Shown here: piece by piece, positions 1,982 through 35,292 of the stretch
How positions within the stretch are numbered: position 1 is the first letter of the stretch
Layout: every line of letters begins with the position of its first letter
Virus record (IMG/VR): IMGVR_UViG_3300046660_000259
Location: 1-35,339 of that record
DNA from: a virus
Reading direction: 5' to 3' (one strand)
DNA: 35,339 bases
The notes under the pieces: generated by a model
What the model saw: the letters and a program-made list of their open reading frames with translations, nothing else
Database searches by the model: none
Told to the model about the DNA's origin: nothing
Translations under genes and position numbers: made by a program

Positions 1982-1996
1982 GGGTGGTCGTCTCGG

Positions 1997-2281: not shown

Positions 2282-2307
2282 TTTCCGTCTCCGTTTCTGA
2301 TGTTCCA

Positions 2308-2336
2308 TTGATAGGGCCAACCGCCCTATGAGTCAA
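2308..2336 (-). promoter_or_regulatory. TAGGGC operator-promoter copy 1
   Basis: Leftward -35 TTGACT (2336-2331), 17-base spacer, -10 TATCAA (2313-2308). The dyad half-sites TAGGGC (2312-2317) and GCCCTA (2323-2328) fill the spacer and overlap the -10. It drives the cassette 2281-1362 inside the late operon. Confidence 0.85.
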
Positions 2337-24773: not shown

Positions 24774-24802
24774 AACATAGGGCAGACGGCCCTATGCGTC
24801 AA
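24774..24802 (-). promoter_or_regulatory. TAGGGC operator-promoter copy 2
   Basis: Leftward -35 TTGACG (24802-24797), 17-base spacer, -10 TATGTT (24779-24774). Half-sites TAGGGC 24778-24783 and GCCCTA 24789-24794. The last codons of the preceding gene (LVVDA-stop) are read through the -35 region and its TAG stop lies in the dyad. Confidence 0.88.
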
Positions 24803-25022
24803 CAACTAAATGCGGCAGGATCGAATTTAGTTTTCCCGGGGGCAGGGTGGCCGCATCCATGGACGAGGTCCCATACGCGTCGAAGTGAACTCTGGGGTCT
24901 AGCTCATTCGCCTTAGCCGTGGCCTCTCGGACGGCATCTTTGGCTCGTTGATGGTCTTTAAATGGACCTAGCAACCATGCGGTACGCTCGCCCCGTTGTA
25001 GGGTGACGTAGTAGCCCTTCAT
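24792..25022 (-). CDS. Small protein (76 aa) ending inside a promoter
   Basis: MKGYYVTLQRGERTAWLLGP followed by FKDHQRAKDAVREATAKANE, an N-terminal strand pair and helix like small 'modulator' domains with a basic helix. The ATG overlaps the preceding stop (ATGA). Its C-terminal residues LVVDA and stop are encoded by promoter copy 2. Third gene of the cassette starting at 25473. Function unknown. Confidence 0.65.
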   Translation of the reverse strand: MKGYYVTLQRGERTAWLLGPFKDHQRAKDAVREATAKANELDPRVHFDAYGTSSMDAATLPPGKLNSILPHLVVDA

Positions 25023-25198
25023 TTCCCCATCCTCCCGACTATCTCCCGCAGAGCCTCTAGGCGGCTGCCGGAGGCCGGACGCTTCCCGCCCATGATCGCC
25101 CGGGCTTCATCGGCCAAACGCCCCACGGCCTTCGGCAGCCCCGCCCTGATGGCGTTCTCTAGGGCTATGACTTCTTCCATTCCGGTTGGCTGTTTCAC
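25019..25198 (-). CDS. Small helical protein (59 aa)
   Basis: GTG at 25198 overlaps the previous stop (GTGA) after GGGAGTTGGAG; MKQPTGMEEVIALENAIRAG, then LPKAVGRLADEARAIMGG and EALREIVGRMGK. All-helical and basic at the end. The stop overlaps the start of the 76-residue gene. A later in-frame ATG at 25180 would give 53 residues; coupling favours the GTG. Not recognised. Confidence 0.6.
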   Translation of the reverse strand: MKQPTGMEEVIALENAIRAGLPKAVGRLADEARAIMGGKRPASGSRLEALREIVGRMGK

Positions 25199-25473
25199 GA
25201 CTCCAACTCCCGCAAAAGCTCGTCGTCCGACATGAAGATTTCATCAAGCGACAACGGCGCGTCATCTTCCATCGCATCCATGTAGCTGCGTGCGCTCTGT
25301 CCGCTCGGTGTCGCCTGCATGCGGAGCATCATAGCCCGCTCTTCGCGGGAGGCGGCCAAATCGGCGTCATGCATATCTGCGAACTCTCCGCGGAAGCACT
25401 CAACGCCATTCCAGTCGGTAACCGTCACGGTGAACTTGCCGGTCACCTTGTTCTTCGCGCTGCGGGTGTGCAT
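25195..25473 (-). CDS. Small acidic protein behind promoter copy 3 (92 aa)
   Basis: First gene of a three-gene cassette. MHTRSAKNKVTGKFTVTVTD, then DWNGVECFRGEF, a helix with EERAMMLRMQ, and an acidic tail (SLDEIFMSDDELLRELES). The leader ACGGAGTTAAGCAGATG is nearly identical to that of the gene at 28055. No known family seen. Confidence 0.65.
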   Translation of the reverse strand: MHTRSAKNKVTGKFTVTVTDWNGVECFRGEFADMHDADLAASREERAMMLRMQATPSGQSARSYMDAMEDDAPLSLDEIFMSDDELLRELES

Positions 25474-25500
25474 CTGCTTAACTCCGTTCCTGATAGACTC

Positions 25501-25529
25501 ACCATAGGGCCAACCGCCCTAGGCGTCAA
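25501..25529 (-). promoter_or_regulatory. TAGGGC operator-promoter copy 3
   Basis: Leftward -35 TTGACG (25529-25524), 17-base spacer, -10 TATGGT (25506-25501). Half-sites TAGGGC 25505-25510 and GCCCTA 25516-25521; the outer right base of the dyad is G rather than T. The TAG stop of the gene at 25530 abuts the -35. Confidence 0.87.
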
Positions 25530-25736
25530 CTACCAATTTGCAGAATCGTCAAAAGAAAATTCACGCACCACTTCAGGGCAGGCAAAAACGACAACGTCGC
25601 CCGGGGCTATATCAGCCTCCGCGCGACGGTCATAGAACCGATGAAAGAAATCCGGCTTGCCCCAGACCTTGACCGCGGCGTGGTAGCGATCGTCTTTGAA
25701 GCCGACGAAGTGGAGGAGGGGAGTCACTACCGCCAA
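25530..25736 (-). CDS. Small protein downstream of the RlaP-like gene (68 aa)
   Basis: TTG start at 25736 overlapping the preceding gene by 10 bp; MAVVTPLLHFVGFKDDRYHA, VKVWGKPDFFHRFYDRRAEA, then DIAPGDVVVFACPE. This is a compact alpha/beta protein similar in composition to small hypothetical proteins of rhizobial phages and plasmids, where 'HFVGFrddryw.Av.vwG.PdFiHr.wD.ra' is a recurring pattern. Function unknown. Its stop touches promoter copy 3. Confidence 0.65.
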   Translation of the reverse strand: MAVVTPLLHFVGFKDDRYHAAVKVWGKPDFFHRFYDRRAEADIAPGDVVVFACPEVVREFSFDDSANW

Positions 25737-26467
25737 TGCCTGCTGTGTAGGTCGACCATAAGCCTATTGATGCCGGCCGTATCCGCGTCCCACTGGCAAT
25801 GTTCAACTAGCGCCCTAAGAGTCGACTCCGTCTCTTCGATCAACCGCAAGGCATCGGCCGCGTTGATCTCACCAACTCTCATAGCGCGGAGAGTCGTCAG
25901 GTTCGGTTCTGCAACCGGCAGTGTTAGCGTTCCGCTTCTCATTAGCTCGACACCTTCGAAGCCAAGTCGCAACGCGTGCATGGCGAATTTGGTATCGTAG
26001 CCGTACTTCGCGACCAACTCCGGACGGCTGACGGTATGAGCCTTCTCGCCTTTCATTTTTTGTTTCTGTGCGATCAGGTAACCTAAGAAACGTTCGCCGG
26101 CTTCGCGACTAACAAAACAATCGCGCGCCTTGACCAACATCTTACCTTCATCTGTGATGTTGATATACTCTGGCAGCCAAAGCAAAATCATTACAGACGG
26201 ATTGCCCTTGGCCGCAAGACGGCAAAATTTGCGAAGGCTGTACATCGTCAAATCAAGATCGCCGGGGCCGCTACGAACGCCGTTGGGCTGCGTTCGCCAA
26301 ATGTAATGGTCTAGCGGCTCAAGACCGCAGACATTCTGCGGAGGCTCAATGAAGATTCCGGTTTCGTCGCGGTCGTCTTGACCAATAATGTTGATGCCGT
26401 GCGCTGTAGAGCCGACTAAGCCGCGCAAGATTTCGTTGTTGGTAACTATGTCTTTGTCGCTGGTCAT
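25727..26467 (-). CDS. RlaP-like nucleotidyltransferase
   Basis: A 246-residue protein. ILRGLVGSTAHGINIIGQDD, then RDETGIFIEP, is the active-site region of the DNA polymerase beta-type nucleotidyltransferases of the RlaP family (G-S helix and D-x-D pair). LDLTMYSLRKFCRLAAKGNP and MLLWLP, followed by AHGF-type helices (TKFAMHALRLGFEGVELM), are also typical. The enzymes transfer nucleotides to RNA or proteins; targets are unknown. It overlaps its 38-residue neighbour by 4 bp and lies in the cassette begun at 27598. Confidence 0.8.
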   Translation of the reverse strand: MTSDKDIVTNNEILRGLVGSTAHGINIIGQDDRDETGIFIEPPQNVCGLEPLDHYIWRTQPNGVRSGPGDLDLTMYSLRKFCRLAAKGNPSVMILLWLPEYINITDEGKMLVKARDCFVSREAGERFLGYLIAQKQKMKGEKAHTVSRPELVAKYGYDTKFAMHALRLGFEGVELMRSGTLTLPVAEPNLTTLRAMRVGEINAADALRLIEETESTLRALVEHCQWDADTAGINRLMVDLHSRHWR

Positions 26468-26580
26468 TTCGATTCCTTCACGTCCCGCTCTGCCTGCCGG
26501 ATCATTCTCGCCAGTGCCGCCAGCGTTCTAGCTGACGGCGGCAGGCTGTAGAAGTCTTTCGCTCGTTCCTCCGGCGTCAT
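26464..26580 (-). CDS. Very small protein between ParB-like and RlaP-like genes (38 aa)
   Basis: MTPEERAKDFYSLPPSARTL followed by AALARMIRQAERDVKESK. Its ATG overlaps the ParB-like stop (TGATG), its TGA overlaps the RlaP-like ATG (ATGA), and it has a GAAGGAAT ribosome site for the next gene in its tail. The double coupling is strong support for a real gene. Helical, function unknown. Confidence 0.65.
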   Translation of the reverse strand: MTPEERAKDFYSLPPSARTLAALARMIRQAERDVKESK

Positions 26581-27356
26581 CACGCCACTTCCAAGCTAAG
26601 CTGCGTTACGATCTTCTGAGCGGCGGGCTTGAGACCGCTGTTGCCGGCTGCGATGTCGCGAACGAATTTCACGAGCACCGCGACATTCTTCGGCGTCGGA
26701 TCGAATTCGCCTTTGCTCTGCCGGATGGTCTTCGCTGTCACCTTCCCGCCGCTCTTGGCCGCTGCGGCCAGCGTCGCACCGGCCTTGGCGCCTTCCTTCT
26801 TGACCACCTTGGCCGCGGTGCTGGCCGCAACCTCGCCACTACGCACCATGGCTTGCACGTCCGGAGCCGCACCAAGAAGCGTCACGTATTGGTCGACGGC
26901 GCCGGCAGACTTCCAGCCGAGTCGCTGCGCGATCTTCGCGGCATCCCAGCCGAAGGCCATCAGGCGCCGAACGACTTCCGCGATAGCCAGCGGCGACAAC
27001 GCCTTGCCGGAGTTCGAAATAACAAGATTGATTACGCGCTCAACTTCGTTGGTGCCCTTCGGCTCCGGAATGGTCGGAACGGTTTCGATCTCCGCGCCCT
27101 CGCTGATGGCCAGCATGGTTGCAGCGTGCCGGCAGTGGCCGGCAACAACGTAGATGTCTTCGCCTTCCAAGCGGACTTCCAGCGGCACGCGAACACCGGA
27201 CTCCTTGATTGAGTCGGCCAGCCAGCGAACGTGCGCGATGGTCTCAGGGTCTTTCATGTCCCGCACGTTGTACGTCGGGTCTACCTTCAGCGCCCGCGGG
27301 TCGACGGGGTAGGAGTCGCGCTTGCCCTTGACGGCTTCGTGGTCACGGAATTGCAT
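26580..27356 (-). CDS. ParB-like protein
   Basis: A 258-residue protein, ATG after AAAGAGGA. An N-terminal ParB/Srx domain (about 15-115) contains VVAGHCRHAATML, the altered GxxR nucleotide-binding motif (G-H-C-R-H instead of G-E-R-R), followed by an HTH at about 130-160 (AKIAQRLGWKSAGAVDQYVT) and a basic, Ala/Lys-rich segment (about 180-215). ParB proteins bind CTP and DNA for segregation; phage copies can also be nucleases or transcription regulators. No ParA gene is present, so partition is doubtful. It lies in the cassette controlled by promoter copy 4. Confidence 0.8.
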   Translation of the reverse strand: MQFRDHEAVKGKRDSYPVDPRALKVDPTYNVRDMKDPETIAHVRWLADSIKESGVRVPLEVRLEGEDIYVVAGHCRHAATMLAISEGAEIETVPTIPEPKGTNEVERVINLVISNSGKALSPLAIAEVVRRLMAFGWDAAKIAQRLGWKSAGAVDQYVTLLGAAPDVQAMVRSGEVAASTAAKVVKKEGAKAGATLAAAAKSGGKVTAKTIRQSKGEFDPTPKNVAVLVKFVRDIAAGNSGLKPAAQKIVTQLSLEVA

Positions 27357-27406
27357 GGGGAGTCCTCTTTGGTTGGAAGTGGTGGGGCATTTGCGCCCCG
27401 GCTGTT

Positions 27407-27598
27407 TCAGTAGTGATGGCGGCTGCCAACGTAGTTGAAATCGTCAAGGGCGTTTTCCGCGCCGCACTCGTCGCCGGCTTCGATCCAAGCCACAATGCTG
27501 TGACGAAGCTTGGTGGTGTCTTCCAAGATCGGAAGGCCGGCTTCGCGGGCTGCGGTTTCAAGTTCTTCGCGGCTGGTGTTTTCGTGGATGAAGAGCAT
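27407..27598 (-). CDS. Small protein leading the ParB-like cassette (63 aa)
   Basis: MLFIHENTSREELETAAREA, LPILEDTTKLRHSIVAWIEA, then DDFNYVGSRHHY. Leader AAAGGAACGCCACATG resembles that of the 24749 gene. It is followed by 50 non-coding bases and the ParB-like gene. A soluble alpha/beta mini-domain; no function recognised. Confidence 0.65.
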   Translation of the reverse strand: MLFIHENTSREELETAAREAGLPILEDTTKLRHSIVAWIEAGDECGAENALDDFNYVGSRHHY

Positions 27599-27624
27599 GT
27601 GGCGTTCCTTTGTTCTGATGATTG

Positions 27625-27653
27625 ACCATAGGGCGAGGAGCCCTATGAGTCAA
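27625..27653 (-). promoter_or_regulatory. TAGGGC operator-promoter copy 4
   Basis: Leftward -35 TTGACT (27653-27648), 17-base spacer, -10 TATGGT (27630-27625). Half-sites TAGGGC 27629-27634 and GCCCTA 27640-27645. It heads the ParB-like/RlaP-like cassette. The TAG stop of the gene at 27657 lies in the conserved TTAGTTG stretch next to the -35. Confidence 0.88.
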
Positions 27654-27656
27654 CAA

Positions 27657-27989
27657 CTAATCGATGTAGGTCCAAAACTTTTTGATGGCCTTTTCGTAGC
27701 CGTAAGCAATCAGCACTTCGCGGAATGCCGACATTGAGTCCTGATAAATGTCCGCGCTCTGGCTGCAGACACCGGCCGGGATGAAGTGCTTAACTGAAAT
27801 GTCTCCGCCAGCGGACGCGAAGCCATGGGCGATCGCTTCTTTGGCAAGCTTCGTATTGCCCTTTAGGTACATAATCGCGCTACCGCATGACCCGCGGTCT
27901 TCCTTACCGTCGCGGTCCCAGATAGCCAGCGCCTTGGCTTCGGCTGCGGTGCGGGCGAGGGTGAGAACTTCAAGAGCGGTGATGGTCAT
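27657..27989 (-). CDS. Small protein behind promoter copy 5 (110 aa)
   Basis: MTITALEVLTLARTAAEAKA, DRDGKEDRGSCGSAIMYLKG, then AKEAIAHGFASAGGDISVKH and SAFREVLIAYGYEKAIKKFW. A soluble alpha/beta protein with Cys in the G-S-C-G-S turn and another near residue 73. GGAGACG ribosome site. Single-gene cassette between promoter copies 4 and 5. Not recognised. Confidence 0.7.
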   Translation of the reverse strand: MTITALEVLTLARTAAEAKALAIWDRDGKEDRGSCGSAIMYLKGNTKLAKEAIAHGFASAGGDISVKHFIPAGVCSQSADIYQDSMSAFREVLIAYGYEKAIKKFWTYID

Positions 27990-28016
27990 GTGCGCGTCTC
28001 CGGTCGGTGTGTCTCT

Positions 28017-28045
28017 TATATAGGGCCGTACGCCCTATACGTCAA
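28017..28045 (-). promoter_or_regulatory. TAGGGC operator-promoter copy 5
   Basis: Leftward -35 TTGACG (28045-28040), 17-base spacer, -10 TATATA (28022-28017), the best -10 of the set. Half-sites TAGGGC 28021-28026 and GCCCTA 28032-28037. Confidence 0.9.
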
Positions 28046-28054
28046 CAACTGTTT

Positions 28055-28270
28055 TTAATTCGAAGCAAGGTTGGCGGTGTGCCAACCGTTGGCCCAACCC
28101 TTCCAAACAGCCGTTGAGAGTTTGCAGCCAATCTTTCCAGTGGGGTTAGCTTCGCGAAGCAGAGGCATAACGGCCGGGTCAAGGCAGGGTGCAGACTTGA
28201 TGCCAGCGGCGAAAGCTGCGGCACCTGCGGCCTGTGCCCGGGTGTAGAAAGCGGTCTCTGCCTTGGTCAT
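28055..28270 (-). CDS. Rmf/CrpP-like small protein (71 aa)
   Basis: MTKAETAFYTRAQAAGAAAF, AAGIKSAPCLDPAV, then STAVWKGWANGWHTANLAS. The Ala/Gly helix, Pro-Cys segment and W-x-x-G-W ending resemble ribosome modulation factor/CrpP-type proteins. Single-gene cassette between promoter copies 5 and 6. Its leader ACGGAGTTGAGCAGATG is nearly identical to that at 25473. Assignment by pattern only. Confidence 0.5.
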   Translation of the reverse strand: MTKAETAFYTRAQAAGAAAFAAGIKSAPCLDPAVMPLLREANPTGKIGCKLSTAVWKGWANGWHTANLASN

Positions 28271-28296
28271 CTGCTCAACTCCGTTTCAATGACCAG

Positions 28297-28325
28297 ACGA
28301 TAGGGCAACACGCCCTATACGTCAA
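28297..28325 (-). promoter_or_regulatory. TAGGGC operator-promoter copy 6
   Basis: Leftward -35 TTGACG (28325-28320), 17-base spacer, -10 TATCGT (28302-28297). Half-sites TAGGGC 28301-28306 and GCCCTA 28312-28317. The stop of the methyltransferase gene is a few bases upstream. Confidence 0.88.
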
Positions 28326-28328
28326 CAC

Positions 28329-29639
28329 CTATTTTGCAGTCATCTTCAAAATAGTTGTGTTGGTGTTGGTTCCGCTCTCACTGAAAGAACCAACCGGCAA
28401 ATCAGACCACCGGCCATCAAGGAGTCCATGATCGTATCGAGCCGTAGCCGGCAGGATTGCGGTTAGAACACCACCGGGATTCAGAAACTTTAAGGCGTGC
28501 TCAACGTGCTTTGCATAGTGCTTGCCGTAGAATGGCGGATTCATCACGACTCGGTCGTAGATCGGAGTCGGGACAGTTTCTAGGAAGTTGGCCAGCAACA
28601 CGCTATGCCCCTTGGCTCGCGTTTCCGCGGCCCTACGTGCGTCGACTTCGATTCCGTAGACATCTGCGCCAGCCTTTCGCAGAGCATCCATAAACCGCCC
28701 GCAACCGCACGAGGGCTCTAGAACCTTTTGGCCTTTGATCGGATAAAGATCGGCAATCACGGTCTCAACCACCTTCGCCGGGGTCGGGTAATACTGAAGG
28801 TCTTTTGAAACTGCGGTGCTTGCCCGAGTCTTTTCCGGCTTCTCTTCGGTCGTGTCCGGCAGAACGTTTCCGTAATATTCCGCGAGGGCTCGGTTAATAT
28901 CCTTCAGAGTCTCGGGTTCGAAAATCAAATGTCCGTTGCCGTTGGCGAAGCGACGGAGACGAACGCCGCGGGCGGTTACCTTGACCATTGCGCCGCGGTA
29001 GCCGTATGGCTTTTCGCCGTTCTCTAGCAACGCGCATTCGTCGCTAAGCAGCGCAGAAACTTCGTCATGCTCAACTAGCGGCTTGCCCTGATAGGCCGCT
29101 AAAGCGTTCAGGATGTTAACGACCTGATCACGCCCATAGCTGCCATAGTTGCCAACGCTACGAATGATGACCCGCTTGGGAAGGCCGGCAACTCCAATCT
29201 TGACCTTGTCGTGGCTCTTGTATGCCGGATCAAGGTTGCAAAACACTTCGGCAAGTCCGCGCAAAATGTTGCCGCGGGGGTCTAAGATGAACTGGCCGAA
29301 CGTTGCGCGGATGTTTTCGAGGGTGAACGGCTCCGGCTTCTCTAGCGCCTGATCGAATCGGCGCTTATCGTTGGCGCTGCAAATCCGTTCGATATTGAGC
29401 CCGTCGTAAACGTGGCGCCATGCCGACTTCAAGAGGCTGTCCGACAGAACCGACTCGTAAACGTGGCCGGTATCGATTTGAGTCCGCCCAAAAGTCCCCG
29501 CGATTGTAGCCGCCATCTTGAGCGCATCGCCAGCCGCGTTGAACTCGGCTAGCGCTGCCTGCGCTTGGCTGCGCTTGTGCTCGTACTCCGACACGACATC
29601 GGAAAGGCTGCGCTGCAGGGTGGGTACATGCATATTCAT
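28329..29639 (-). CDS. DUF4942 - DNA N6-adenine methyltransferase fusion
   Basis: A 436-residue protein. The N-terminal ~260 residues match DUF4942 (FGQFILDPRGNILRGLAEVF, then KIGVAGLPKRVIIRSV), a domain often joined to phage or plasmid methyltransferases. From residue 280 (LQYYPTPAKVVETVIADLYP) a class I methyltransferase follows: motif I VLEPSCGCGRF (306-316) and catalytic NPPF (367-370), implying methylation of an exocyclic amino group, most likely adenine N6. No partner nuclease is present, so it looks like an orphan methylase for protection or regulation. It overlaps the preceding gene by 4 bp. Confidence 0.85.
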   Translation of the reverse strand: MNMHVPTLQRSLSDVVSEYEHKRSQAQAALAEFNAAGDALKMAATIAGTFGRTQIDTGHVYESVLSDSLLKSAWRHVYDGLNIERICSANDKRRFDQALEKPEPFTLENIRATFGQFILDPRGNILRGLAEVFCNLDPAYKSHDKVKIGVAGLPKRVIIRSVGNYGSYGRDQVVNILNALAAYQGKPLVEHDEVSALLSDECALLENGEKPYGYRGAMVKVTARGVRLRRFANGNGHLIFEPETLKDINRALAEYYGNVLPDTTEEKPEKTRASTAVSKDLQYYPTPAKVVETVIADLYPIKGQKVLEPSCGCGRFMDALRKAGADVYGIEVDARRAAETRAKGHSVLLANFLETVPTPIYDRVVMNPPFYGKHYAKHVEHALKFLNPGGVLTAILPATARYDHGLLDGRWSDLPVGSFSESGTNTNTTILKMTAK

Positions 29640-29914
29640 GACAGGGCGGCTTCCATCGTCGAAACATCACGGCGCGAACCGCCGTCAAGAGAGTTGGAAG
29701 CGGCAAGGTACAGTTCGCTGTCGACGCCTTGAAAGCCTTTGAAGTGGACACACCAACCGATGGTCTCGCGATAGACGATGAAGGTTTTACCGTCCGCGGT
29801 GACACGGTAGCGGCCGGGCTCGAATTCGAACAACGAGCCGCATGTGCCTTGCGCGGTGCGGCTGCGCAAGTAGCAAAGAACGATCGTTTCGATTTTTTCT
29901 GCGGTGTTCATCAT
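29636..29914 (-). CDS. Small protein upstream of the methyltransferase (92 aa)
   Basis: Starts at MM (29914 or 29911) after GGGGGATAGAG. MNTAEKIETIVLCYLRSRTA, then GSLFEFEPGRYRVTADGKTF and WCVHFKGFQGVDSELYLAAS. The alpha/beta look is of a small single-domain protein. The stop overlaps the methyltransferase start (ATGA), so co-translation and possibly partnership with it are likely. Not recognised. Confidence 0.65.
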   Translation of the reverse strand: MMNTAEKIETIVLCYLRSRTAQGTCGSLFEFEPGRYRVTADGKTFIVYRETIGWCVHFKGFQGVDSELYLAASNSLDGGSRRDVSTMEAALS

Positions 29915-29929
29915 TGCTCTATCCCCCGG

Positions 29930-30172
29930 TTAGATCGCGATGGCTTGCGCCAGATGCTTGAAGTAGTGGCAGACATCGCCGTTACGAAAATCGATCTTGA
30001 CCACCATCGACTTAATCCCGGCCTGTTCGTGAGCGGGTGCGTTCTTGATTGCTTCGATCACGCAAGCGAGGGGAATGTAGTTCGGGCCTGACTTGCCGTT
30101 GACAGTGAACACCTGTTCAAGATCAAGGCCCTTTTCGTTGATGAAAGTTTCAAGCCACTTGGTGAAGGTCAT
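29930..30172 (-). CDS. Small protein behind promoter copy 7 (80 aa)
   Basis: The start at 30172 (MTFTKWLETFINEKGLDLEQ) follows GGGAGCGG; the longer frame from 30226 covers the promoter. Continues VFTVNGKSGPNYIPLACVIE and a helix-strand end (MVVKIDFRNGDVCHYFKHLA). First gene of the cassette that includes the methyltransferase. Resembles small phage proteins of unknown function. Confidence 0.7.
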   Translation of the reverse strand: MTFTKWLETFINEKGLDLEQVFTVNGKSGPNYIPLACVIEAIKNAPAHEQAGIKSMVVKIDFRNGDVCHYFKHLAQAIAI

Positions 30173-30201
30173 TGGTGCCGCTCCCGTTTGCCGATGACCA
30201 G

Positions 30202-30230
30202 ACCATAGGGCGGCACGCCCTATCAATCAA
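30202..30230 (-). promoter_or_regulatory. TAGGGC operator-promoter copy 7
   Basis: Leftward -35 TTGATT (30230-30225), 17-base spacer, -10 TATGGT (30207-30202). Half-sites TAGGGC 30206-30211 and GCCCTA 30217-30222. The upstream gene ends KIVVD-stop across the -35. Confidence 0.87.
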
Positions 30231-30387
30231 CAACTATCTTCGAGTCCGGAAACAATCTTTTTGCGGCCTTGTCGGCGTCTTTAAACAGAGCCTTGCTGTC
30301 GACGCGAACGCCCTTGCTATTGAAGATCAACCACCGGCCGTTGACTCGACGGATAGTTACGGTTGTTGGTTCTTTCCAGACGCTCAT
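30223..30387 (-). CDS. Small basic protein (54 aa) ending inside promoter copy 7
   Basis: ATG 30387 (MSVWKEPTTVTIRRVNGRWL) overlaps the preceding stop (ATGA); a 180-codon open frame extends further upstream but has no support. IFNSKGVRVDSKALFKDADK and AAKRLFPDSKIVVD. A three-stranded sheet plus a helix is plausible. Its last codons and TGA are read from the -35 region of promoter copy 7. Confidence 0.65.
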   Translation of the reverse strand: MSVWKEPTTVTIRRVNGRWLIFNSKGVRVDSKALFKDADKAAKRLFPDSKIVVD

Positions 30388-30554
30388 TCTTCCATGTTCC
30401 TCAAATAGACGGCTTCGACGATCGCACAATGAACGTCTAGGCCAAGGCTGTTGCCAAGAAGCCAAGGCAACCAAGACGGAGACCAGAGCGCGTGCGGGTT
30501 GGTGCGGTCGTTCAAGAGGCCGGCGTGATAGCCGTTGTCGTATGGTGTGGTCAT
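30384..30554 (-). CDS. Small protein, possibly Rmf/CrpP-like (56 aa)
   Basis: ATG 30554 with AGAAGG upstream, in an ATGA overlap with the preceding gene. MTTPYDNGYHAGLLNDRTNP, then SWLPWLLGNSLGLDVHCAIV. The YxxGYxAG-x5-NP opening echoes Rmf-type proteins, with a Trp-rich middle. Tentative. The stop overlaps the next ATG. Confidence 0.5.
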   Translation of the reverse strand: MTTPYDNGYHAGLLNDRTNPHALWSPSWLPWLLGNSLGLDVHCAIVEAVYLRNMEE

Positions 30555-30787
30555 GCCGCAACCTTCTGCTTCTTGCGGGAGCGCCACCAAGCCAGTTCAC
30601 GAATCTTCCGCTCTTCGTCTGAGAGCAAGCCGTTCCCGCAATCACAACGCAGGCTAGCAATCGCTGCCGGCATCGCACCGGCCACGAGACGCCAGTTGCG
30701 CCAATCGGCACCATCTGAATGAACGGAGCGTTCAAGGTCCAGAGTGCCTTTGCCGTGACGATCAACCGTCCGATATTCGATTGCCAT
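30551..30787 (-). CDS. Small protein leading the leftward operon at 30.8 kb (78 aa)
   Basis: ATG 30787 (MAIEYRTVDRHGKGTLDLER) after GGGGGAACG. Continues GADWRNWRLVAGAMPAAIAS with a CDCGNGLLSDEERK segment and a basic tail (WWRSRKKQKVAA). A Cys-x-Cys is present but no full metal site. First gene of the only early leftward operon without a TAGGGC module; it lies behind two TAGC-type operator-like sites. Confidence 0.65.
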   Translation of the reverse strand: MAIEYRTVDRHGKGTLDLERSVHSDGADWRNWRLVAGAMPAAIASLRCDCGNGLLSDEERKIRELAWWRSRKKQKVAA

Positions 30788-30809
30788 TTTCGTTCCCCCG
30801 ATTCCAGTG

Positions 30810-30824
30810 TCGCTAGAATAGCTA
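30810..30824. promoter_or_regulatory. TAGC-type operator-like 15-mer, site 1
   Basis: TCGCTAGAATAGCTA matches site 2 (30856-30870) at 12 of 15 positions in the same orientation. On the minus strand it contains TATTCT, which with TTGCGG 16 bases upstream could be the promoter for the 30787 gene. So a protein bound here would cover the -10. Confidence 0.5.
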
Positions 30825-30855
30825 CACGATCGCGCGCCGCAAAGCAAGCCCCATG

Positions 30856-30870
30856 TAGCGAAAATAGCTA
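30856..30870. promoter_or_regulatory. TAGC-type operator-like 15-mer, site 2
   Basis: TAGCGAAAATAGCTA, with TAGC-N7-GCTA dyad symmetry, 46 bp from site 1 in the intergenic region between the divergent genes at 30787 (-) and 30921 (+). Dyad size is typical of CI/Cro-type operators. Confidence 0.5.
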
Positions 30871-30920
30871 GCGTGTACCCGATGTATCTGCTACCGCTAC
30901 CTTAACGAGTAGGGGGCGGC

Positions 30921-31097
30921 GTGAACAAACCATGGGTACGAACGGCTGGATTCTGGATTGGGATTAGCGCCGGGGCTGCTCTCGCGGCGTGGATGTGGGC
31001 GGGAATGATTTTCGGGCCGCCATCTGGCAGCGCGGAGGCTGGGGACGTTAATCCGCCCCGGGAGCTACATCGGTGCCCGAAACCGACAGGCCCCTAG
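30921..31097 (+). CDS. Small membrane protein (58 aa), rightward
   Basis: GTG start after AGGGGGCGG. MNKPWVRTAGFWIGISAGAA, LAAWMWAGMIFGPPSG: one membrane helix at about 10-32 and a short Pro-rich tail. It is the only rightward gene in the right third of the window, divergent from 30787. It shares a palindromic CTAG stop with the convergent gene at 31094. Its orientation could mark it as a lysogeny-expressed gene; that is speculation. Confidence 0.55.
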   Translation: MNKPWVRTAGFWIGISAGAALAAWMWAGMIFGPPSGSAEAGDVNPPRELHRCPKPTGP

Positions 31098-31438
31098 CGG
31101 GCCGCCTGAGCGGCTGTGACGATGCCGTCTGTCAGGTAGACGTAATGGCCGGTTCCATAAACCCACTGCTCGTGCCGGTGGCCGGCTGTCAGGGTCTCAT
31201 TGACCCGGGCTGGCTTGCCCCAGCATGACTTGCGGACGCCTTCGGCCGTCTGCCCGATCTTCACCCCGCCTAGCCGATCGCACAGCGCCTTTTGATCGGC
31301 CTCACGCTTGACCGTATCGGCTCGCATTACGGCAATCTTCGCCCGCTGTTCGGCTAGCCACTGATCGGCCGCGGCCTGATCCGCGAGTGCTGGCGCGATC
31401 GTGGCGGCAAGGGTGGCGACAACCAAGGCGATACGCAT
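31094..31438 (-). CDS. Exported small protein, BamE/SmpA-like
   Basis: A 114-residue protein with a signal peptide (MRIALVVATLAATIAPALA, cleavage after ALA), a helical segment (DQWLAEQRAKIAVMRADTVK), and a C-terminal domain VKIGQTAEGVRKSCWGKPAR, then HEQWVYGTGHYVYLTDGIVT, which matches the BamE/SmpA-OmlA theme ('i..Gmt..eV....G.P......g....w.Y'). It would be periplasmic, perhaps modifying the envelope of a lysogen. GAGGA precedes the ATG. Separate from both neighbouring operons. Confidence 0.65.
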   Translation of the reverse strand: MRIALVVATLAATIAPALADQAAADQWLAEQRAKIAVMRADTVKREADQKALCDRLGGVKIGQTAEGVRKSCWGKPARVNETLTAGHRHEQWVYGTGHYVYLTDGIVTAAQAAR

Positions 31439-31734
31439 GCGGAATCCTCGCTGAAAGCGAGAGGCTAGCTCAGTAAGAAATACGATGCAAATTTCTGACA
31501 GAGACCTTCATTGCGCCATCGTCTGGGACAAGATAGACAAGCGCCGTTTTCGTCTTGGACTACTTTTCAAGATGTCTTGGAAATTCAATATAGGAAAAAT
31601 TGTCCAAGAGGCTTAAAACTTCAGTGAAATCAATGGGCTGCATTACCGATAGGGTATGACGGAGGTATTACATCATACGAAAAACATTGAGGTTTTTTGC
31701 GTTTTGTCCAAGCTGCTTTTGGCTATTGGACAAT
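31439..31734. promoter_or_regulatory. Gene-free AT-rich region with CTTGGACAA-type repeats
   Basis: No convincing gene. Six related elements occur: GGGACAAGA (31525), TCTTGGAC (31553), TCTTGGAA (31575), ATTGTCCAAGA (31599), TTGTCCAAG (31704), ATTGGACAAT (31725). The last two make an 8-bp inverted repeat (TTGTCCAA/TTGGACAA, 14-base loop). Several are about 21-24 bases apart, two helical turns. GTATGA and TCATAC (about 31656-31680) form another small inverted repeat. It must hold the promoter of the exported protein at 31438; the repeats could also be regulator, replication-initiator or integrase arm sites. Confidence 0.55.
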
Positions 31735-32202
31735 TTAGGTGGCCTTAAATCGAAAAATGAACCCGTCTCCGTGGGGCTTTGGCCTCTGCCCGGTCCACTG
31801 GTAAGTCTTCCCGTTCAGTGTGGCTTCGATCGTATACGAAGCCGCCATGTCAACTTCTGCTACCGGCCCGGTTATCGTCCCCTCCGTGGTCACGTTGACG
31901 GTGATGGGGTCGGTGGAGCGAAGGCCAGCAGCCGCCAAGGGGATATGGGTTCCGTCCCGCCACCCGCAGGGTGTGTCCGCCAACCGATACGCTAGCGCCA
32001 TTGAACTGCCGGGCGGATGGTAGCAGCCAAACTGGTCTATAGCCCCGCCCCGGGCGTCTACAGGGCTCTTTCCGTCCGACAGGTCGTATCGCTCGTACTC
32101 GGACCAACCACACCCCGGGCAGCCGTAGGGGCCGCATTCGACCCCGACTCCAATGTCGACTTCGACCCGGTCGCAGGGCTCATTGCATTTGGGGCAGTTC
32201 AT
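31735..32202 (-). CDS. Zinc-ribbon protein at the end of the integrase operon (155 aa)
   Basis: The start at 32202 (MNCPKCNEPCDRVEVDIGVG) follows TGAGGAA; upstream codons belong to a small membrane gene in the other frame. C3xxC6, C10, C23 and GCPGCGW (C28, C31) make an N-terminal zinc ribbon. The rest is beta-rich (ITVNVTTEGTITGPVAEVDM, then YTIEATLNGKTYQWTGQRPK). The N-terminal type is common in phage 'restriction alleviation'-like small proteins (Lar family), but the C-terminal part is not recognised. Confidence 0.65.
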   Translation of the reverse strand: MNCPKCNEPCDRVEVDIGVGVECGPYGCPGCGWSEYERYDLSDGKSPVDARGGAIDQFGCYHPPGSSMALAYRLADTPCGWRDGTHIPLAAAGLRSTDPITVNVTTEGTITGPVAEVDMAASYTIEATLNGKTYQWTGQRPKPHGDGFIFRFKAT

Positions 32203-32212
32203 GGGCGGTTCC

Positions 32213-32344
32213 TCAGGGAGAGCGAGTAAGTGAATGATATAGGTCGGCCAGATTGGCGCGGACGACCTCTTTCGGCGGCTCGGTGTAGTTGGCAATGAGC
32301 CAGCCGAAGAACAGTCCGGTAGCGAATACGAATATCATTCTCAC
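32213..32344 (-). CDS. Small membrane protein (43 aa)
   Basis: GTG at 32344 (MRMIFVFATGLFFGWLIANY) after AAGGAGCG; one membrane helix at about 3-20, then TEPPKEVVRANLADLYHSLT and RSP. The stop lies in the repeated CTCCCTGAGGAA junction, which serves as ribosome site for the zinc-ribbon gene. An ATG two codons later is an alternative start. Function unknown. Confidence 0.55.
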   Translation of the reverse strand: MRMIFVFATGLFFGWLIANYTEPPKEVVRANLADLYHSLTRSP

Positions 32345-32359
32345 TTCAGCGCTCCTTGC

Positions 32360-32530
32360 TCATGGAGTCTCATCTTCTGAGATCAGCGGATAAGGTGCGA
32401 CTTCCGCCTTGATCGGGGTCGCATCGTCTGGGCGCCTACCTCGGATGAATTTAACAACCCCGCCGTATTTGGGGAACCAAAACACTCCGTGCGCCCAATC
32501 GTCGTCTTCTGGCTTGTTGTGTTCGGTCAT
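32360..32530 (-). CDS. Small protein (56 aa)
   Basis: ATG 32530 overlaps the preceding stop (ATGA), with CTGAGGAA as ribosome site. MTEHNKPEDDDWAHGVFWFP, then KYGGVVKFIRGRRPDD, an acidic N-terminus and a beta-hairpin-like, Trp/Phe-rich core. Resembles short phage proteins of unknown function. Support is from coupling and ribosome site. Confidence 0.55.
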   Translation of the reverse strand: MTEHNKPEDDDWAHGVFWFPKYGGVVKFIRGRRPDDATPIKAEVAPYPLISEDETP

Positions 32531-32724
32531 CGGGGCTTCCTCAGGGAGTATAGGGCGTGGAACGCCGGGACGCAGTTCACCAATCCATCTTGTTCGTTAG
32601 CGGCTCGGCCCATGAGATAGTATGAATCCAACTTTTCTAGCGTACCGGACTCTCTCAATTTTTCAATATCTCGAAGCCCTTGCGGGTTACGTGCAAAAAA
32701 CTCTTTAGCTTCTTGTTTGGTCAT
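32527..32724 (-). CDS. Small helical protein (65 aa)
   Basis: ATG 32724 after CTGAGGAA. MTKQEAKEFFARNPQGLRDI, EKLRESGTLEKLDSYYLMGR, then DGLVNCVPAFHALYSLRKPR. Helical and basic, overlapping the 56-residue gene by 4 bp. No recognised family. Confidence 0.6.
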   Translation of the reverse strand: MTKQEAKEFFARNPQGLRDIEKLRESGTLEKLDSYYLMGRAANEQDGLVNCVPAFHALYSLRKPR

Positions 32725-32734
32725 GCTCGATTCC

Positions 32735-32923
32735 TCAGGGAGAGCGAGGTAGTGGCTGACTAAGAGAACTGGCGGATACTGTTAAGCCGCTAGCAGGCCA
32801 CCGATTTTGTTTTTCGATATACTTGATCGTATACATCAGGGCATCGATCAACTCCTCCCTCGAAAGATCGATAAGAAACTTGCCGCGATATGTGATTTTT
32901 TCAGCGCTCAAAAGGTCCATCAT
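32735..32923 (-). CDS. Small helical protein (62 aa)
   Basis: Begins MMDLLSAEKITYRGKFLIDL at 32923 or 32920, five bases after the previous stop with GTGAGGGA upstream; the frame is open to 32959 but that lies inside the preceding gene. SREELIDALMYTIKYIEKQN is an amphipathic helix. The end (SLSQPLPRSP) is encoded by the repeated CTCTCCCTGAGG junction. Confidence 0.55.
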   Translation of the reverse strand: MMDLLSAEKITYRGKFLIDLSREELIDALMYTIKYIEKQNRWPASGLTVSASSLSQPLPRSP

Positions 32924-32927
32924 TCCC

Positions 32928-33152
32928 TCACTTCGTGACTGATTGCCCATCACTGCCACTCACAAACGAAAACTCTCGAATCTTCCCGGTCCAAAAATCT
33001 TGCGCCTTGGCGGCTGCCTCGCAATCCGCCTTGGTCTTGCCGTAGGTGACGACGTGAGTCCGCTCACCATCCCAGCCGATCAAGAGAACCTGCTTCAGGT
33101 CGTGTTTTTCGGCTACCGCCTTCGCGGTAGCGATCGGGATACGTCTGGGCAT
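32928..33152 (-). CDS. Small protein downstream of integrase (74 aa)
   Basis: ATG 33152 after GAGGGAG, sharing a base with the previous stop (TAATG). MPRRIPIATAKAVAEKHDLK, then QVLLIGWDGERTHVVTYGKT and AAAKAQDFWTGKIREF. This 'IPi..Ak.iA.ky...qViliaWDG...HvvTyG.t..dc..AA' sequence is a well-conserved small family I have seen in phages and rhizobial genomes, without a known function. Confidence 0.7.
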   Translation of the reverse strand: MPRRIPIATAKAVAEKHDLKQVLLIGWDGERTHVVTYGKTKADCEAAAKAQDFWTGKIREFSFVSGSDGQSVTK

Positions 33153-33298
33153 TAATGAATCTCCCTCGTGAGTTCCCGCCAAGCGTCCCGGTGTATGCGC
33201 TGGGCTTCAATGAATTCCGTTTGTGCCGACGCGTAAGCTTTAGTAGCTTTGTCTAGCCGTTCCTTGGTCTTCATCAGGTGGTCGTTTTTGTCGTACAT
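33152..33298 (-). CDS. Small coiled-coil protein (48 aa)
   Basis: ATG 33298 overlaps the integrase stop (TGATG); MYDKNDHLMKTKERLDKATK, then AYASAQTEFIEAQRIHRDAW and a short basic end. Continuous helix with heptad-like spacing. Both ends are coupled to neighbours, which supports translation. It could be an integrase accessory factor, but no such protein is recognised. Confidence 0.6.
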   Translation of the reverse strand: MYDKNDHLMKTKERLDKATKAYASAQTEFIEAQRIHRDAWRELTREIH

Positions 33299-34377
33299 CA
33301 CGCACCCCTCTTTGTTGCAGCCGCAGCAAGCTTCTTCTGATTGGCGGCCTTCGTGTAGCGCTCAACTTCCTTCATGGTCGTGTGTCCGGTGATAGACATA
33401 ATTTCCTTTTCGGTCGCGCTGTTGTCGGCAAGCCGGGTTGCTGCAGCCTTTCGCAAGCCGTGCGATCGGCCGGGGACGTTCGCAGCTATGCAGGCGCCCG
33501 CGAAAAACTCGGTGAAGCTCGCCCGCGTGTGAGGCTTGCCGCTCGCTTGAGCCAGAAACGTCTTCGTTTCAATTCCATCAATCAATTTTTCAAGCTCCGG
33601 ACGAAGCGGGATTTGCAAATGAACCGGCTTGCTATTCCTGTTTTTGTGTTGCGTGAAATCCAACCATTTGCCGTCTTCGTGCTGCTTCACGTGCTCCGGC
33701 CCGAACTGCCGAACGTCGGAAGCCCGCTGCCCGGTGTAGAGCAGCAAGCCAAGTGCTAGCCGTTCTTGCGTCCCCATGGCCCATGTAGATTCGAACGTCT
33801 CGACTTCCTCAAGAGTCCACGTGTGGTGACCGTCAGCATTCTTCGGCTTCAATCGACGGAAGGCCGCAGCCGGATTCGTCTCGATATGATCGGCGTCGAC
33901 AGCCCAACGAAAGAGAACATGCAGCGCCTTCACGATCTCGTTTGACATGCTTGGCGTTTCGGCGTGCCGGTCGCGGATGGCGCGGACAGCTTGCCGGTTC
34001 CAAGCTGTCAACGGCACGTCACCGAAGAGAACCTTGCTGCCGTCTTTGATCGGCATGCGAGCGACGCGGCGATAAATGCGACCACGCATCGGCTTTGACA
34101 ACGCGTCGTCAAGCCCCTTCCACTCGCCAGTTTCGTAATACTGTTCAAGAAGCCAATTGAAATCGTTCACCTTGCGCGGCACGATCGGCCCGGGTGTGAT
34201 CGCCACAACGTTTTCGCCACCCATCGCCGCGGCCCAACGGGCCATGAACGCTGGAGTCCACGGCACGCCTTCAATGCGAACCTTCGGCTTCTTTGGGCGG
34301 CGAAAATAGAATCGCTCTTTCTTGTCCGGCCCGATGTCGCACGTGATGTATTTGGGCAGCTTGCGGCGGGTGGTCAT
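33298..34377 (-). CDS. int: Tyrosine recombinase integrase
   Basis: A 359-residue protein with all catalytic residues: R218 in TGQRASDV, K245, H306xxR309 in HGLRK, H332 in GHTT and Y341 in ERYTKAA. The N-terminal part has arm-binding-like segments and a core-binding SAM-like domain (about 70-175). It integrates or excises the phage at an attachment site. It is the sixth gene of a leftward operon beginning at 35238, not preceded by its own promoter. No attP core was identified. Confidence 0.92.
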   Translation of the reverse strand: MTTRRKLPKYITCDIGPDKKERFYFRRPKKPKVRIEGVPWTPAFMARWAAAMGGENVVAITPGPIVPRKVNDFNWLLEQYYETGEWKGLDDALSKPMRGRIYRRVARMPIKDGSKVLFGDVPLTAWNRQAVRAIRDRHAETPSMSNEIVKALHVLFRWAVDADHIETNPAAAFRRLKPKNADGHHTWTLEEVETFESTWAMGTQERLALGLLLYTGQRASDVRQFGPEHVKQHEDGKWLDFTQHKNRNSKPVHLQIPLRPELEKLIDGIETKTFLAQASGKPHTRASFTEFFAGACIAANVPGRSHGLRKAAATRLADNSATEKEIMSITGHTTMKEVERYTKAANQKKLAAAATKRGA

Positions 34378-34383
34378 TGTGAA

Positions 34384-34611
34384 CTAACCGTTATCAGCGT
34401 GGTTGGCGTAGCGATTCAGAGCGTGCAAAATTCCAACCCGAGTCGGCTCAACATCGATTAGCTCAATGTCGCCTTGTTGGTCTATTACGTCTCCGGGGCT
34501 GTTCTTTCTCCAAACGTTTAGGGCCTTTTCGGCCTCGCGCCTACTTGCGAAGTATTCGTAGCCTGCGCTGGTCCCACCCTCACAGATGCGGTGAAGTTGA
34601 TAGAATTTCAT
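34384..34611 (-). CDS. Small protein upstream of integrase (75 aa)
   Basis: The start at 34611 (MKFYQLHRICEGGTSAGYEY) follows CAGGAAC; an in-frame extension upstream overlaps the next gene. FASRREAEKALNVWRKN is a helix and IELIDVEPTRVGILHALNRY a strand-helix end. This is a recognisable style of small phage protein ('f.s..eA......w') of unknown function, possibly an excisionase-like helper by position only. It ends six bases before the integrase. Confidence 0.65.
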   Translation of the reverse strand: MKFYQLHRICEGGTSAGYEYFASRREAEKALNVWRKNSPGDVIDQQGDIELIDVEPTRVGILHALNRYANHADNG

Positions 34612-34817
34612 TGTGATTGTTCCTGATAAATCTGGCCGTACATAAAAACCGGGGCTGCCGGCGGCAACTTGCACTCGTCCCAATGACGTGCGCCGCATGT
34701 GCTACAATAGAAATCGCAGCCAGAAAATTTGTCGAAGCGAATATCTGCGCTCGGGCACTCGCCCTCTTGTGCAAACCGCTTTCCGTCTCGCCTTGTGTAT
34801 CTTCTCGCGGTCATCAT
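34608..34817 (-). CDS. Small cysteine-rich protein (69 aa)
   Basis: MMTARRYTRRDGKRFAQEGE, then DFYCSTCGARHWDEC. Cys at about 21, 34, 38, 41 and 49 suggests a zinc-binding site in a basic protein. It overlaps both neighbours by 4 bp (ATGA). Either of two adjacent ATGs may be the start. Could be a DNA-binding accessory protein; not recognised. Confidence 0.6.
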   Translation of the reverse strand: MMTARRYTRRDGKRFAQEGECPSADIRFDKFSGCDFYCSTCGARHWDECKLPPAAPVFMYGQIYQEQSQ

Positions 34818-35014
34818 TTGCCTACCGTAACCTTTTCGCTTCTAACTCCAACGGGACGACTGTCGTTGGCATCAATCCATTTTTGAGCGTACGCCACCGC
34901 TTCAACGCGAGTTTTAAAATTCTTTTGAATCGGTATGTGCGTGCGGCCATCGTACACAACAACAGCCTTGTAGCCACACACGCCGTTCTTTCTGGCCGAT
35001 GCCGTCTTGTTCAT
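34814..35014 (-). CDS. Small basic alpha/beta protein (66 aa)
   Basis: MNKTASARKNGVCGYKAVVV, then YDGRTHIPIQKNFKTRVEAV and AYAQKWIDAND. A three-stranded sheet followed by one helix with an 'F.tr.eA..yA..wi' end looks like an AP2/LSD1-type small DNA-binding or arm-binding fold. It overlaps both neighbours by 4 bp. Tentative. Confidence 0.6.
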   Translation of the reverse strand: MNKTASARKNGVCGYKAVVVYDGRTHIPIQKNFKTRVEAVAYAQKWIDANDSRPVGVRSEKVTVGK

Positions 35015-35238
35015 TTGTAATACCTATTTTGCTTGCGACGGAAAGAAGAGACGGCTGGAAACTGTTTTGACATTGAGTCATTCTGATCGCGCCATCCGAC
35101 TGCCCAATCAGAACCGTCCTGCTCTTGGCCGGCCATGTAACGCTGAATACCGCGGACAACTTCGCCGCGGTGCGGATTAGCGTCCGACTTGGCGCCGCTA
35201 AGGCGGGCATTCTTTCCGGCTTCGTACTGGGTTGTCAT
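35011..35238 (-). CDS. Rmf/CrpP-like small protein leading the integrase operon (75 aa)
   Basis: The start at 35238 (MTTQYEAGKNARLSGAKSDA) follows AAGGGATGG; an ATG nine bases earlier is possible. The pattern YxxGxxAxxSG, ANPHRGEV and SDWAVGWRDQND resembles the Rmf/CrpP fold, here with a longer middle (MAGQEQDG). First gene behind promoter copy 8, heading the operon that contains the integrase. Assignment by pattern only. Confidence 0.55.
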   Translation of the reverse strand: MTTQYEAGKNARLSGAKSDANPHRGEVVRGIQRYMAGQEQDGSDWAVGWRDQNDSMSKQFPAVSSFRRKQNRYYK

Positions 35239-35263
35239 TGGAGCCATCCCTTGCTGCTCACCC

Positions 35264-35292
35264 TTAATAGGGCGATTCGCCCTACGAGTCAA
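35264..35292 (-). promoter_or_regulatory. TAGGGC operator-promoter copy 8
   Basis: Leftward -35 TTGACT (35292-35287), 17-base spacer, -10 TATTAA (35269-35264). Half-sites TAGGGC 35268-35273 and GCCCTA 35279-35284; the outer base pair next to the -35 is C rather than T. Drives the integrase operon. The TGA of the partial gene at 35289 lies in the -35. Confidence 0.87.

What the first reader, a model, noticed from the sequence alone, without database searches (positions are those of the whole stretch)
24774..35292. A family of near-identical operator-promoters drives the whole leftward region
Eight copies (2308, 24774, 25501, 27625, 28017, 28297, 30202, 35264) share: -35 TTGAC or TTGAT, exactly 17 spacer bases, -10 TATNNN, and a dyad TAGGGC-N5-GCCCTA positioned identically. 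The five central bases differ in almost every copy, as expected for a dimeric protein footprint and not for an RNA hairpin. Binding would cover the -10 and the spacer, so repression is the simplest model. One protein would thus co-control integrase, methyltransferase, ParB-like and RlaP-like proteins and many small genes. Most temperate phages use one or two operators; a dispersed set resembles the stoperator idea of mycobacteriophage L5 but sits inside promoters. I know of no description of this motif.
Basis: partly seen in the sequence, partly recalled or inferred. Interest (0 to 1): 0.9.

Follow-up and report, generated by a model that had tools for sequence, protein, structure and literature searches.

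The report
Phage-wide regulon of an Aca-type repressor
Nine near-identical switch-like promoters scattered through this bacterial virus are most likely all turned off by one small virus protein of the type that normally controls a single anti-CRISPR operon, and the same protein-switch pairing recurs in dozens of other viruses, plasmids and prophages, so the switch could serve as bait to find unknown anti-defence genes.

Summary
The window holds nine exact TAGGGC-N5-GCCCTA dyads (0 in 100 shuffles). Eight are as reported; a ninth lies at 1833-1849. All sit between -35 and -10 of leftward promoters. Within the phage lineage the half-sites never drift.

Of 112 viral sequences holding the motif (the window plus 111 stretches fetched by DNA pattern alone), 75 also encode one family of small helix-turn-helix proteins, in 65 within 1.2 kb downstream on the promoter's strand. 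Conversely, 20 of 52 loci fetched by that protein alone carry the operator with at most one mismatch upstream (3 of 520 shuffles do). Symmetric half-site changes track recognition-helix residue 41. The closest solved relatives are the anti-CRISPR-associated repressors Aca10, Aca1, Aca3 and Aca2. The window's only member (1601-1362) lies second in the operon behind the ninth operator. Host chromosomes hardly carry the motif.

Best reading: an Aca-type autorepressor whose operator spread to nine promoters, giving an early burst and then shut-off of integrase, methyltransferase, ParB-like, RlaP-like and many small genes. New variant of a known kind; archaeal viruses give a precedent. Binding and repression are inferred, not shown.

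The parts
1833..1849 (-). Promoter-operator 1 (ninth copy, not in the finding): TTGACG (1858-1853), dyad TAGGGC-GTTGT-GCCCTA, 18-base spacer, -10-like TAGGGT; drives 1809-1591 and the HTH gene
   Evidence: same longer spacing and TAGGGT in relative L015 at 1628
2312..2328 (-). Promoter-operator 2: TTGACT (2336-2331), dyad, TATCAA; drives 2281-1997
   Evidence: same gene behind the same operator in L015
24778..24794 (-). Promoter-operator 3: TTGACG, 17, TATGTT; drives 24749-24486; the TAG of the dyad is the stop codon of the upstream gene 25022-24792
25505..25521 (-). Promoter-operator 4: TTGACG, 17, TATGGT; drives 25473-24792
27629..27645 (-). Promoter-operator 5: TTGACT, 17, TATGGT; drives 27598-25530 (small gene, ParB-like, RlaP-like)
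28021..28037 (-). Promoter-operator 6: TTGACG, 17, TATATA; drives 27989-27657
28301..28317 (-). Promoter-operator 7: TTGACG, 17, TATCGT; drives 28270-28055
30206..30222 (-). Promoter-operator 8: TTGATT, 17, TATGGT; drives 30172-28329 (two small genes, DUF4942 methyltransferase)
35268..35284 (-). Promoter-operator 9: TTGACT, 17, TATTAA; drives 35238 leftward through small genes and integrase to about 31735
1362..1601 (-). Proposed regulator: 79-aa Aca-type helix-turn-helix protein, recognition helix 36-44 with R37, R40, R41
   Evidence: the only family member in the window; no other HTH_3-type match; closest solved relatives Aca10, Aca1, Aca3, Aca2; AF2 model and Foldseek
1591..1809 (-). 72-aa small protein, first gene of the regulator's operon (weak ribosome modulation factor-like match)
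   Evidence: PF04957, E 1.6e-5, below the curated cut-off
1997..2281 (-). 94-aa small protein behind operator 2
   Evidence: homologue behind the operator in L015
24486..24749 (-). 87-aa small protein behind operator 3, followed by a terminator-like hairpin at 24473-24454
25195..25473 (-). 92-aa small protein, first gene behind operator 4
26580..27356 (-). ParB-like protein behind operator 5
   Evidence: phrog_1033, E 1.2e-48; HTH_ParB
25727..26467 (-). RlaP-like nucleotidyltransferase behind operator 5
   Evidence: PF10127, E 1.3e-25
27657..27989 (-). 110-aa small protein behind operator 6
28055..28270 (-). 71-aa small protein behind operator 7
29930..30172 (-). 80-aa small protein (phrog_6004), first gene behind operator 8; a 60% identical gene lies behind the same operator in the otherwise unrelated contig L028
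28329..29639 (-). DUF4942 plus methyltransferase domain protein behind operator 8
   Evidence: (PF13708, E 2.6e-36)
33298..34377 (-). Tyrosine integrase in the operon behind operator 9
   Evidence: phrog_1, E 3.6e-33

Best explanation
The dyads are operators of a small phage-encoded HTH repressor of the anti-CRISPR-associated (Aca) type, encoded at 1601-1362. A dimer binds the two TAGGGC half-sites between -35 and -10 and blocks RNA polymerase. All nine promoters therefore fire at once when the phage DNA enters a cell without the repressor, then shut down together as the repressor, made from its own operator-controlled operon, accumulates. In most other mobile elements with this operator it controls a single small-gene-plus-repressor operon. 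In this phage lineage, and in at least two other contigs, the operator has spread to many promoters. Shown: the sequence pattern, the two-way linkage of motif and HTH family, the conservation of half-sites, the Aca-like sequence and fold. Inferred: binding, repression, timing, anti-defence role of the small genes.
For: Nine exact dyads, none in shuffles. Forward test: of 112 sequences (window plus the 111 stretches), 75 encode the HTH family at E<=1e-10; in 65 of these it starts 0-1.2 kb downstream on the promoter's strand (binomial against a generous 25% gives 4e-29). Reverse test: 52 loci fetched by the HTH protein alone; operator with 0-1 mismatch within 1.5 kb upstream in 20 of 52, against 3 of 520 shuffles, nearly all with the -35 in place. 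Named bacterial genomes with the motif: 11 of 18 loci also hold the HTH, among them Rhodoblastus, a Xanthobacteraceae MAG, Variovorax, Sedimenticola, Thiobacillus. Specificity covariation: with RRW in the recognition helix 18 loci are closer to TAGGGC and 1 to TAGGCC; with RKW 5 are closer to TAGGCC and 1 to TAGGGC (Fisher p 6e-4), and the changes are dyad-symmetric. Those two helix positions align with Aca10 Q37 and Q38, corresponding to Aca2 Q33 and Y34, residues important for promoter recognition (PMC9410881). Closest solved sequences: Aca10 (4e-7), Aca1 (3e-6), Aca3, Aca2. Foldseek: the nine best are Aca1, Aca2 and Aca7, among them Aca1 bound to a 19-bp palindrome (probability 0.99-1.0 but E only 0.08-0.17). 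Aca1's operator TTAGGCACAATGTGCCTAA (in PMC9410881) has the same 17-bp outer geometry. All tested bacterial Aca families repress promoters with the dyad in the core promoter (PMC9410906).
Against: No binding, transcription or reporter data. The window's protein has L where Aca10 R44, critical for its DNA binding, aligns. The covariation has exceptions: an RHGRKW subfamily (L025, L033, L058 and others) stands with TAGGGC; the RQRW trend (TACG in L153 and L230) fails in L231 and in Pseudanabaena phage Pan3; the related RKW loci are not all independent. The 16-copy contig G003 has only a weak HTH match (E 3e-4). L014 and L084, relatives with 3 and 5 copies, show no HTH, but they are fragments. 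No known anti-CRISPR gene was seen.
Confidence: 0.82

Rival explanations
1. A host regulator uses this site, and the phage borrowed it, so the phage genes answer to host physiology.
For: The motif occurs in many unrelated contigs, and four Bradyrhizobium genomes have it upstream of rpmB.
Against: Only 18 stretches in 85,000 species genomes carry the full pattern, about 7 expected by chance alone; 3 of 398 genomes of the order have it. The viral loci yield 70 sites with the same stricter pattern. The linked HTH gene lies on the element itself.
Confidence: 0.05
2. The dyads are sites for the phage's own ParB-like protein (27356-26580), i.e. dispersed centromere-like parS sites that overlap promoters.
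For: The window encodes a ParB-like protein with an HTH_ParB domain, and relatives L014 and L084 keep it.
Against: Among more than 100 motif loci only those two relatives have a detectable homologue, whereas 75 have the Aca-type HTH. The fixed register to the -35 in all copies is unneeded for partition.
Confidence: 0.04
3. The HTH protein binds the dyads but activates, or both activates and represses, rather than simply represses.
For: The -10 elements are only moderate (TATNNN), which leaves room for an activator; the HTH's own promoter differs in spacing (18) and -10 (TAGGGT).
Against: The dyad covers the spacer and the -10 start, not the usual activator position upstream of -35; spacing is already the optimal 17; all tested Aca relatives repress (PMC9410906).
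Confidence: 0.1
4. The repeats are RNA hairpins (terminators or leader elements) or mobile repeat sequences, not protein operators.
For: Perfect 6-bp stems with a 5-base loop; one copy scores as a terminator-like site; symmetric changes in variants would also keep a hairpin.
Against: The dyad lies upstream of the transcription start of its own promoter and in fixed register with -35; only one of nine is followed by a T run; changes track recognition-helix residues.
Confidence: 0.03

Closest known systems
Aca autorepressors of acr-aca operons (Aca1, Aca2, Aca10; PMC9410906, PMC9410881)
   Same: Small HTH protein encoded behind small variable genes; inverted repeat inside the core promoter; closest solved sequences and folds; Aca1 operator TTAGGCACAATGTGCCTAA has the same 17-bp outer geometry.
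   Different: Known cases control one operon with one or two repeats; here nine promoters in one phage (16 and 5 in two other contigs). Different half-site. No known anti-CRISPR gene seen.
Aca8-linked early regulatory sequence of archaeal viruses (PMC11065993)
   Same: One short regulatory sequence in front of many small early genes and of the aca gene; proposed early burst then repression; used as bait for anti-defence genes.
   Different: Archaeal TATA/BRE promoters and wHTH Aca8; here bacterial sigma-70-type promoters with a defined palindrome in the spacer, and linkage tested in both directions.
Stoperators of cluster A mycobacteriophages (PMC9283540)
   Same: Many copies of one repressor site spread over a phage genome.
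   Different: Asymmetric sites bound by a monomer that stop elongation; here symmetric dyads inside promoters.

Membership tests
Anti-CRISPR-associated (Aca) autorepressor system, in the broad sense | Small single-domain HTH protein related to known Aca proteins | tested here: met
   79 aa; family profile's best solved matches are Aca10 4e-7, Aca1 3e-6, Aca3, Aca2; Foldseek top nine all Aca
Anti-CRISPR-associated (Aca) autorepressor system, in the broad sense | Inverted repeat within the core promoter of its own operon | tested here: met
   copy at 1833-1849 upstream of the operon; same in L015 and in many unrelated loci
Anti-CRISPR-associated (Aca) autorepressor system, in the broad sense | aca gene lies downstream of small variable genes in the same operon | tested here: met
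   72-aa gene then HTH in the window; different small gene in L015; 118 near-distinct first genes, median 81 aa, in 108 families
Anti-CRISPR-associated (Aca) autorepressor system, in the broad sense | Operon encodes a known anti-CRISPR protein | not tested
   No anti-CRISPR library at hand; Pfam hits on first genes include ArdC, Antirestrict and RadC but no Acr. PMC9410906 reports that only 15% of Aca-like genes sit with known acr genes
Anti-CRISPR-associated (Aca) autorepressor system, in the broad sense | The protein represses its cognate promoter | not testable with these tools
   needs a reporter or shift assay
A named Aca family (Aca1 to Aca12) | Matches the family's own HMM and operator sequence | tested here: inconclusive
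   Similar to several solved Aca proteins but no named Aca model in Pfam or NCBIfam was passed; half-site differs from Aca1, Aca2 and Aca10; HMMs for Aca4 to Aca12 not at hand
Mycobacteriophage stoperators | Asymmetric site, mostly outside promoters, that stops elongation | tested here: not met
   perfect dyad, always within a promoter
parS-type centromere of the ParB-like protein | Site occurs with the ParB gene | tested here: not met
   ParB-like homologue in 2 of more than 100 other motif loci, both relatives of the window

The most novel reading that the evidence does not exclude
An Aca-type repressor family shared by phages, prophages and plasmids of alpha-, beta- and gammaproteobacteria has, several times, been promoted from autorepressor of one operon to master switch of a dispersed immediate-early programme. 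Its operator is a ready bait for unknown anti-defence genes, and two recognition-helix residues (40 and 41) largely set the half-site, so operators could be predicted from protein sequence.
Probability: 0.45. Interest if true: 0.78.

Novelty: new variant of a known kind. Interest (0 to 1): 0.62.

Why it matters
Aca proteins are known as local brakes on single anti-CRISPR operons. A single brake acting on nine promoters, including integrase and DNA-modifying genes, would make Aca-type control a genome-wide timing device in tailed phages, as proposed for archaeal viruses. Because the operator is short, exact and rare in host chromosomes, scanning for it picks out small, mostly unannotated genes next to antirestriction genes (ArdC, Antirestrict, RadC), a direct route to new anti-defence functions. 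The residue-to-base correlation makes the specificity of this large protein group testable.

Tried and rejected
Megablast of the whole window against phage records: no match. Window HTH by tblastn in phages: one weak hit. A profile scan with the broad alignment A1 failed for lack of a conserved stretch, so a subfamily (A2) was used; row 6 of A2 had its N-terminal residues mistyped by me, which does not touch the patterns used or the confirming sequence. Host-regulator, ParB-site, hairpin and stoperator readings were tested and set aside. Literature search for the half-site strings gave nothing relevant. Searches for a clean RQRW to TACG rule gave 2 supporting loci (L153, L230) and at least 2 that do not fit (L231, Pan3 L240), so that rule is only a lead. 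Pfam and PHROGs give no function for most small genes behind the operators. The one-mismatch copy at 12224-12240 lies inside a coding gene without a -35 and was dismissed.
Full report
WHAT IS THERE. The window is an IMG/VR virus record of 35,339 bases, 55% G+C. Rightward head, connector and tail genes fill 75 to about 24,400 and a leftward block runs from the right end to 24,486. It is a fragment: overlapping near-identical contigs add a head protease and major head protein gene to the left (L037) and a DNA helicase gene to the right (L056). The dyad TAGGGC-N5-GCCCTA occurs nine times exactly and never in 100 shuffles. On the minus strand eight copies read TTGAY-N3-TAGGGC-N5-GCCCTA-T with a 17-base spacer. 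The ninth has one extra base and a TAGGGT in place of TATNNN.

ANATOMY. The promoters are packed at gene ends. The TAG of the dyad at 24794 is the stop codon of gene 25022-24792, and the -35 of the copies at 24794 and 30222 encodes the last residues VVD of the upstream gene (read). Start codons follow 23 to 33 bases after the dyad, mostly with a GGAG or AGGA-like ribosome site. The nine units are: 1809-1362; 2281-1997; 24749-24486, ending in a terminator-like hairpin; 25473-24792; 27598-25530 with ParB-like and RlaP-like genes; 27989-27657; 28270-28055; 30172-28329 with a DUF4942 methyltransferase; and 35238 leftward through the integrase. Genes 31438-30223 have no copy directly in front of them.

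FINDING THE PROTEIN. A scan of viral contigs with the DNA pattern alone returned 111 stretches. I built a profile from three HTH proteins seen near the motif and iterated it over all open frames of these loci. Of 112 sequences (these 111 plus the window) 75 have a member at E<=1e-10. In 65 of the 75 the domain starts 0 to 1.2 kb downstream of the motif on the promoter's strand. Some loci without a hit are cut close to the motif. In the window there is exactly one member, 1601-1362, second gene behind the ninth dyad, and no other HTH_3 match. The same arrangement, with a 68% identical HTH and a different small gene in front, sits between the same head-tail genes in the related contig L015.

REVERSE TEST. 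I then fetched loci by protein sequence only. Within 1.5 kb upstream of the HTH, 20 of 52 have the operator with at most one mismatch, against 3 of 520 shuffled controls. A search that asks only for a palindrome at the right distance from a TTG box, without naming its half-site letters, gives 25 sites against 5 in shuffles, and nearly all are TAGGGC-like.

COVARIATION. Fetching loci whose recognition helix reads RKW in place of RRW gave symmetric TAGGCC operators in L151/L224 (the same contig), L218 and L222, and GGCC-core variants in L165, L210 and L220. RR: 18 loci nearer TAGGGC and 1 nearer TAGGCC. RK: 5 nearer TAGGCC and 1 nearer TAGGGC. Fisher p is 6e-4, with the caution that some loci are related; at least two distinct subfamilies show it. 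These residues align with Aca10 Q37 and Q38, corresponding to Aca2 Q33 and Y34, which were found important for promoter recognition (PMC9410881). Exceptions exist (an RHGRKW subfamily with TAGGGC), so this is a trend, not a code.

HALF-SITES DO NOT DRIFT. In the window and its relatives L014, L015 and L084 (integrase about 54%, ParB-like 73-83%, HTH 68% identical) all 20 promoter-linked copies are exact. Allowing three mismatches adds only a few matches that look like chance, while the centres differ.

NOT A HOST REGULON. One genome per species for 85,000 species gives 18 stretches with the stricter pattern. Four of them are the same site upstream of rpmB in Bradyrhizobium (identified as ribosomal protein bL28 by eye). 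Eleven of 18 carry the HTH close by (the match in L122 is weak, the other ten are 1e-9 or better). In 398 genomes of the order only three have the pattern.

WHAT IT IS. The family profile's best solved matches are Aca10, Aca1, Aca3 and Aca2. The AlphaFold2 model (pLDDT 86) is a helical HTH with the recognition helix at 36-44, and its nine best structural matches are Aca1, Aca2 and Aca7, though with weak E-values as expected for a 79-residue protein. Bacterial Aca families have their inverted repeat in the core promoter and repress it (PMC9410906). Published cases have one or two repeats per promoter of one operon. In archaeal viruses 11 of 13 early SIRV2 genes share a regulatory sequence thought to be shut down by Aca8 (PMC11065993). 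The present case is the same idea in a tailed phage, with a defined palindrome and a two-way linkage test.

WHAT IT CONTROLS. First genes behind the operator in other elements are small (median 81 aa) and diverse (108 families among 153 genes). Those with Pfam matches include ArdC, Antirestrict (2) and RadC (2). In the window one 80-aa gene behind the operator has a 60% identical homologue behind the same operator in the otherwise unrelated contig L028, which suggests that gene and operator travel together. An anti-defence role for the small genes is an inference by association.

OTHER DISPERSED CASES. Contig G003 has 16 exact copies in 17 kb and G004 has 5 in 16 kb, the latter with a clear HTH. 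In the stretches held, neither shares other proteins with the window.

LIMITS. No experiment shows binding or repression. The direction (repression) rests on position and on Aca precedent. The record is incomplete, so a further regulator outside it cannot be excluded.

Noticed in passing
window 30815-30880: Upstream of gene 30787 two similar words TAGCTATTTTCGCTACATGG and TAGCTATTCTAGCGACACTGG lie about 40 bases apart; perhaps a second, different operator pair for the genes without the main motif.
   Followed up: partly
window 31440-31740: Intergenic stretch with several copies of CTTGGACAA or its complement; could be a replication, attachment or regulatory site.
   Followed up: no
window 19939-20427: Mom-like DNA modification gene (phrog_1384, E 2.8e-35) in the rightward block; together with the DUF4942 methyltransferase it suggests protection from restriction.
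   Followed up: no
window 32213-32760: Three small genes are preceded by nearly the same stretch CTCTCCCTGAGGAA before their start codons, a repeated ribosome-site cassette.
   Followed up: no
window 1362-2328: Two leftward units are inserted between rightward head-tail genes, kept at the same place in L015; a moron-like position for the regulator.
   Followed up: partly
L123, L124, L126, L129: The full promoter-operator pattern stands upstream of rpmB (ribosomal protein bL28) in four Bradyrhizobium genomes without an HTH nearby; shared by descent, meaning unknown.
   Followed up: no
L238 and L239 at 2934 to 3651: Bradyrhizobium plasmids carry a longer HTH protein of this family next to Fic and abortive-infection genes, with TAGGGC and CTAGGTCC dyads in tandem upstream (one mismatch in L238).
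   Followed up: partly
L018 and L067 (one 17-kb contig, G003): Sixteen exact operators in 17 kb, several with almost identical promoters, but only a weak HTH candidate (STSTMQRYL).
   Followed up: partly
window 1591-1809 and 35011-35238: Two small proteins behind operators have weak ribosome modulation factor-like matches.
   Followed up: no
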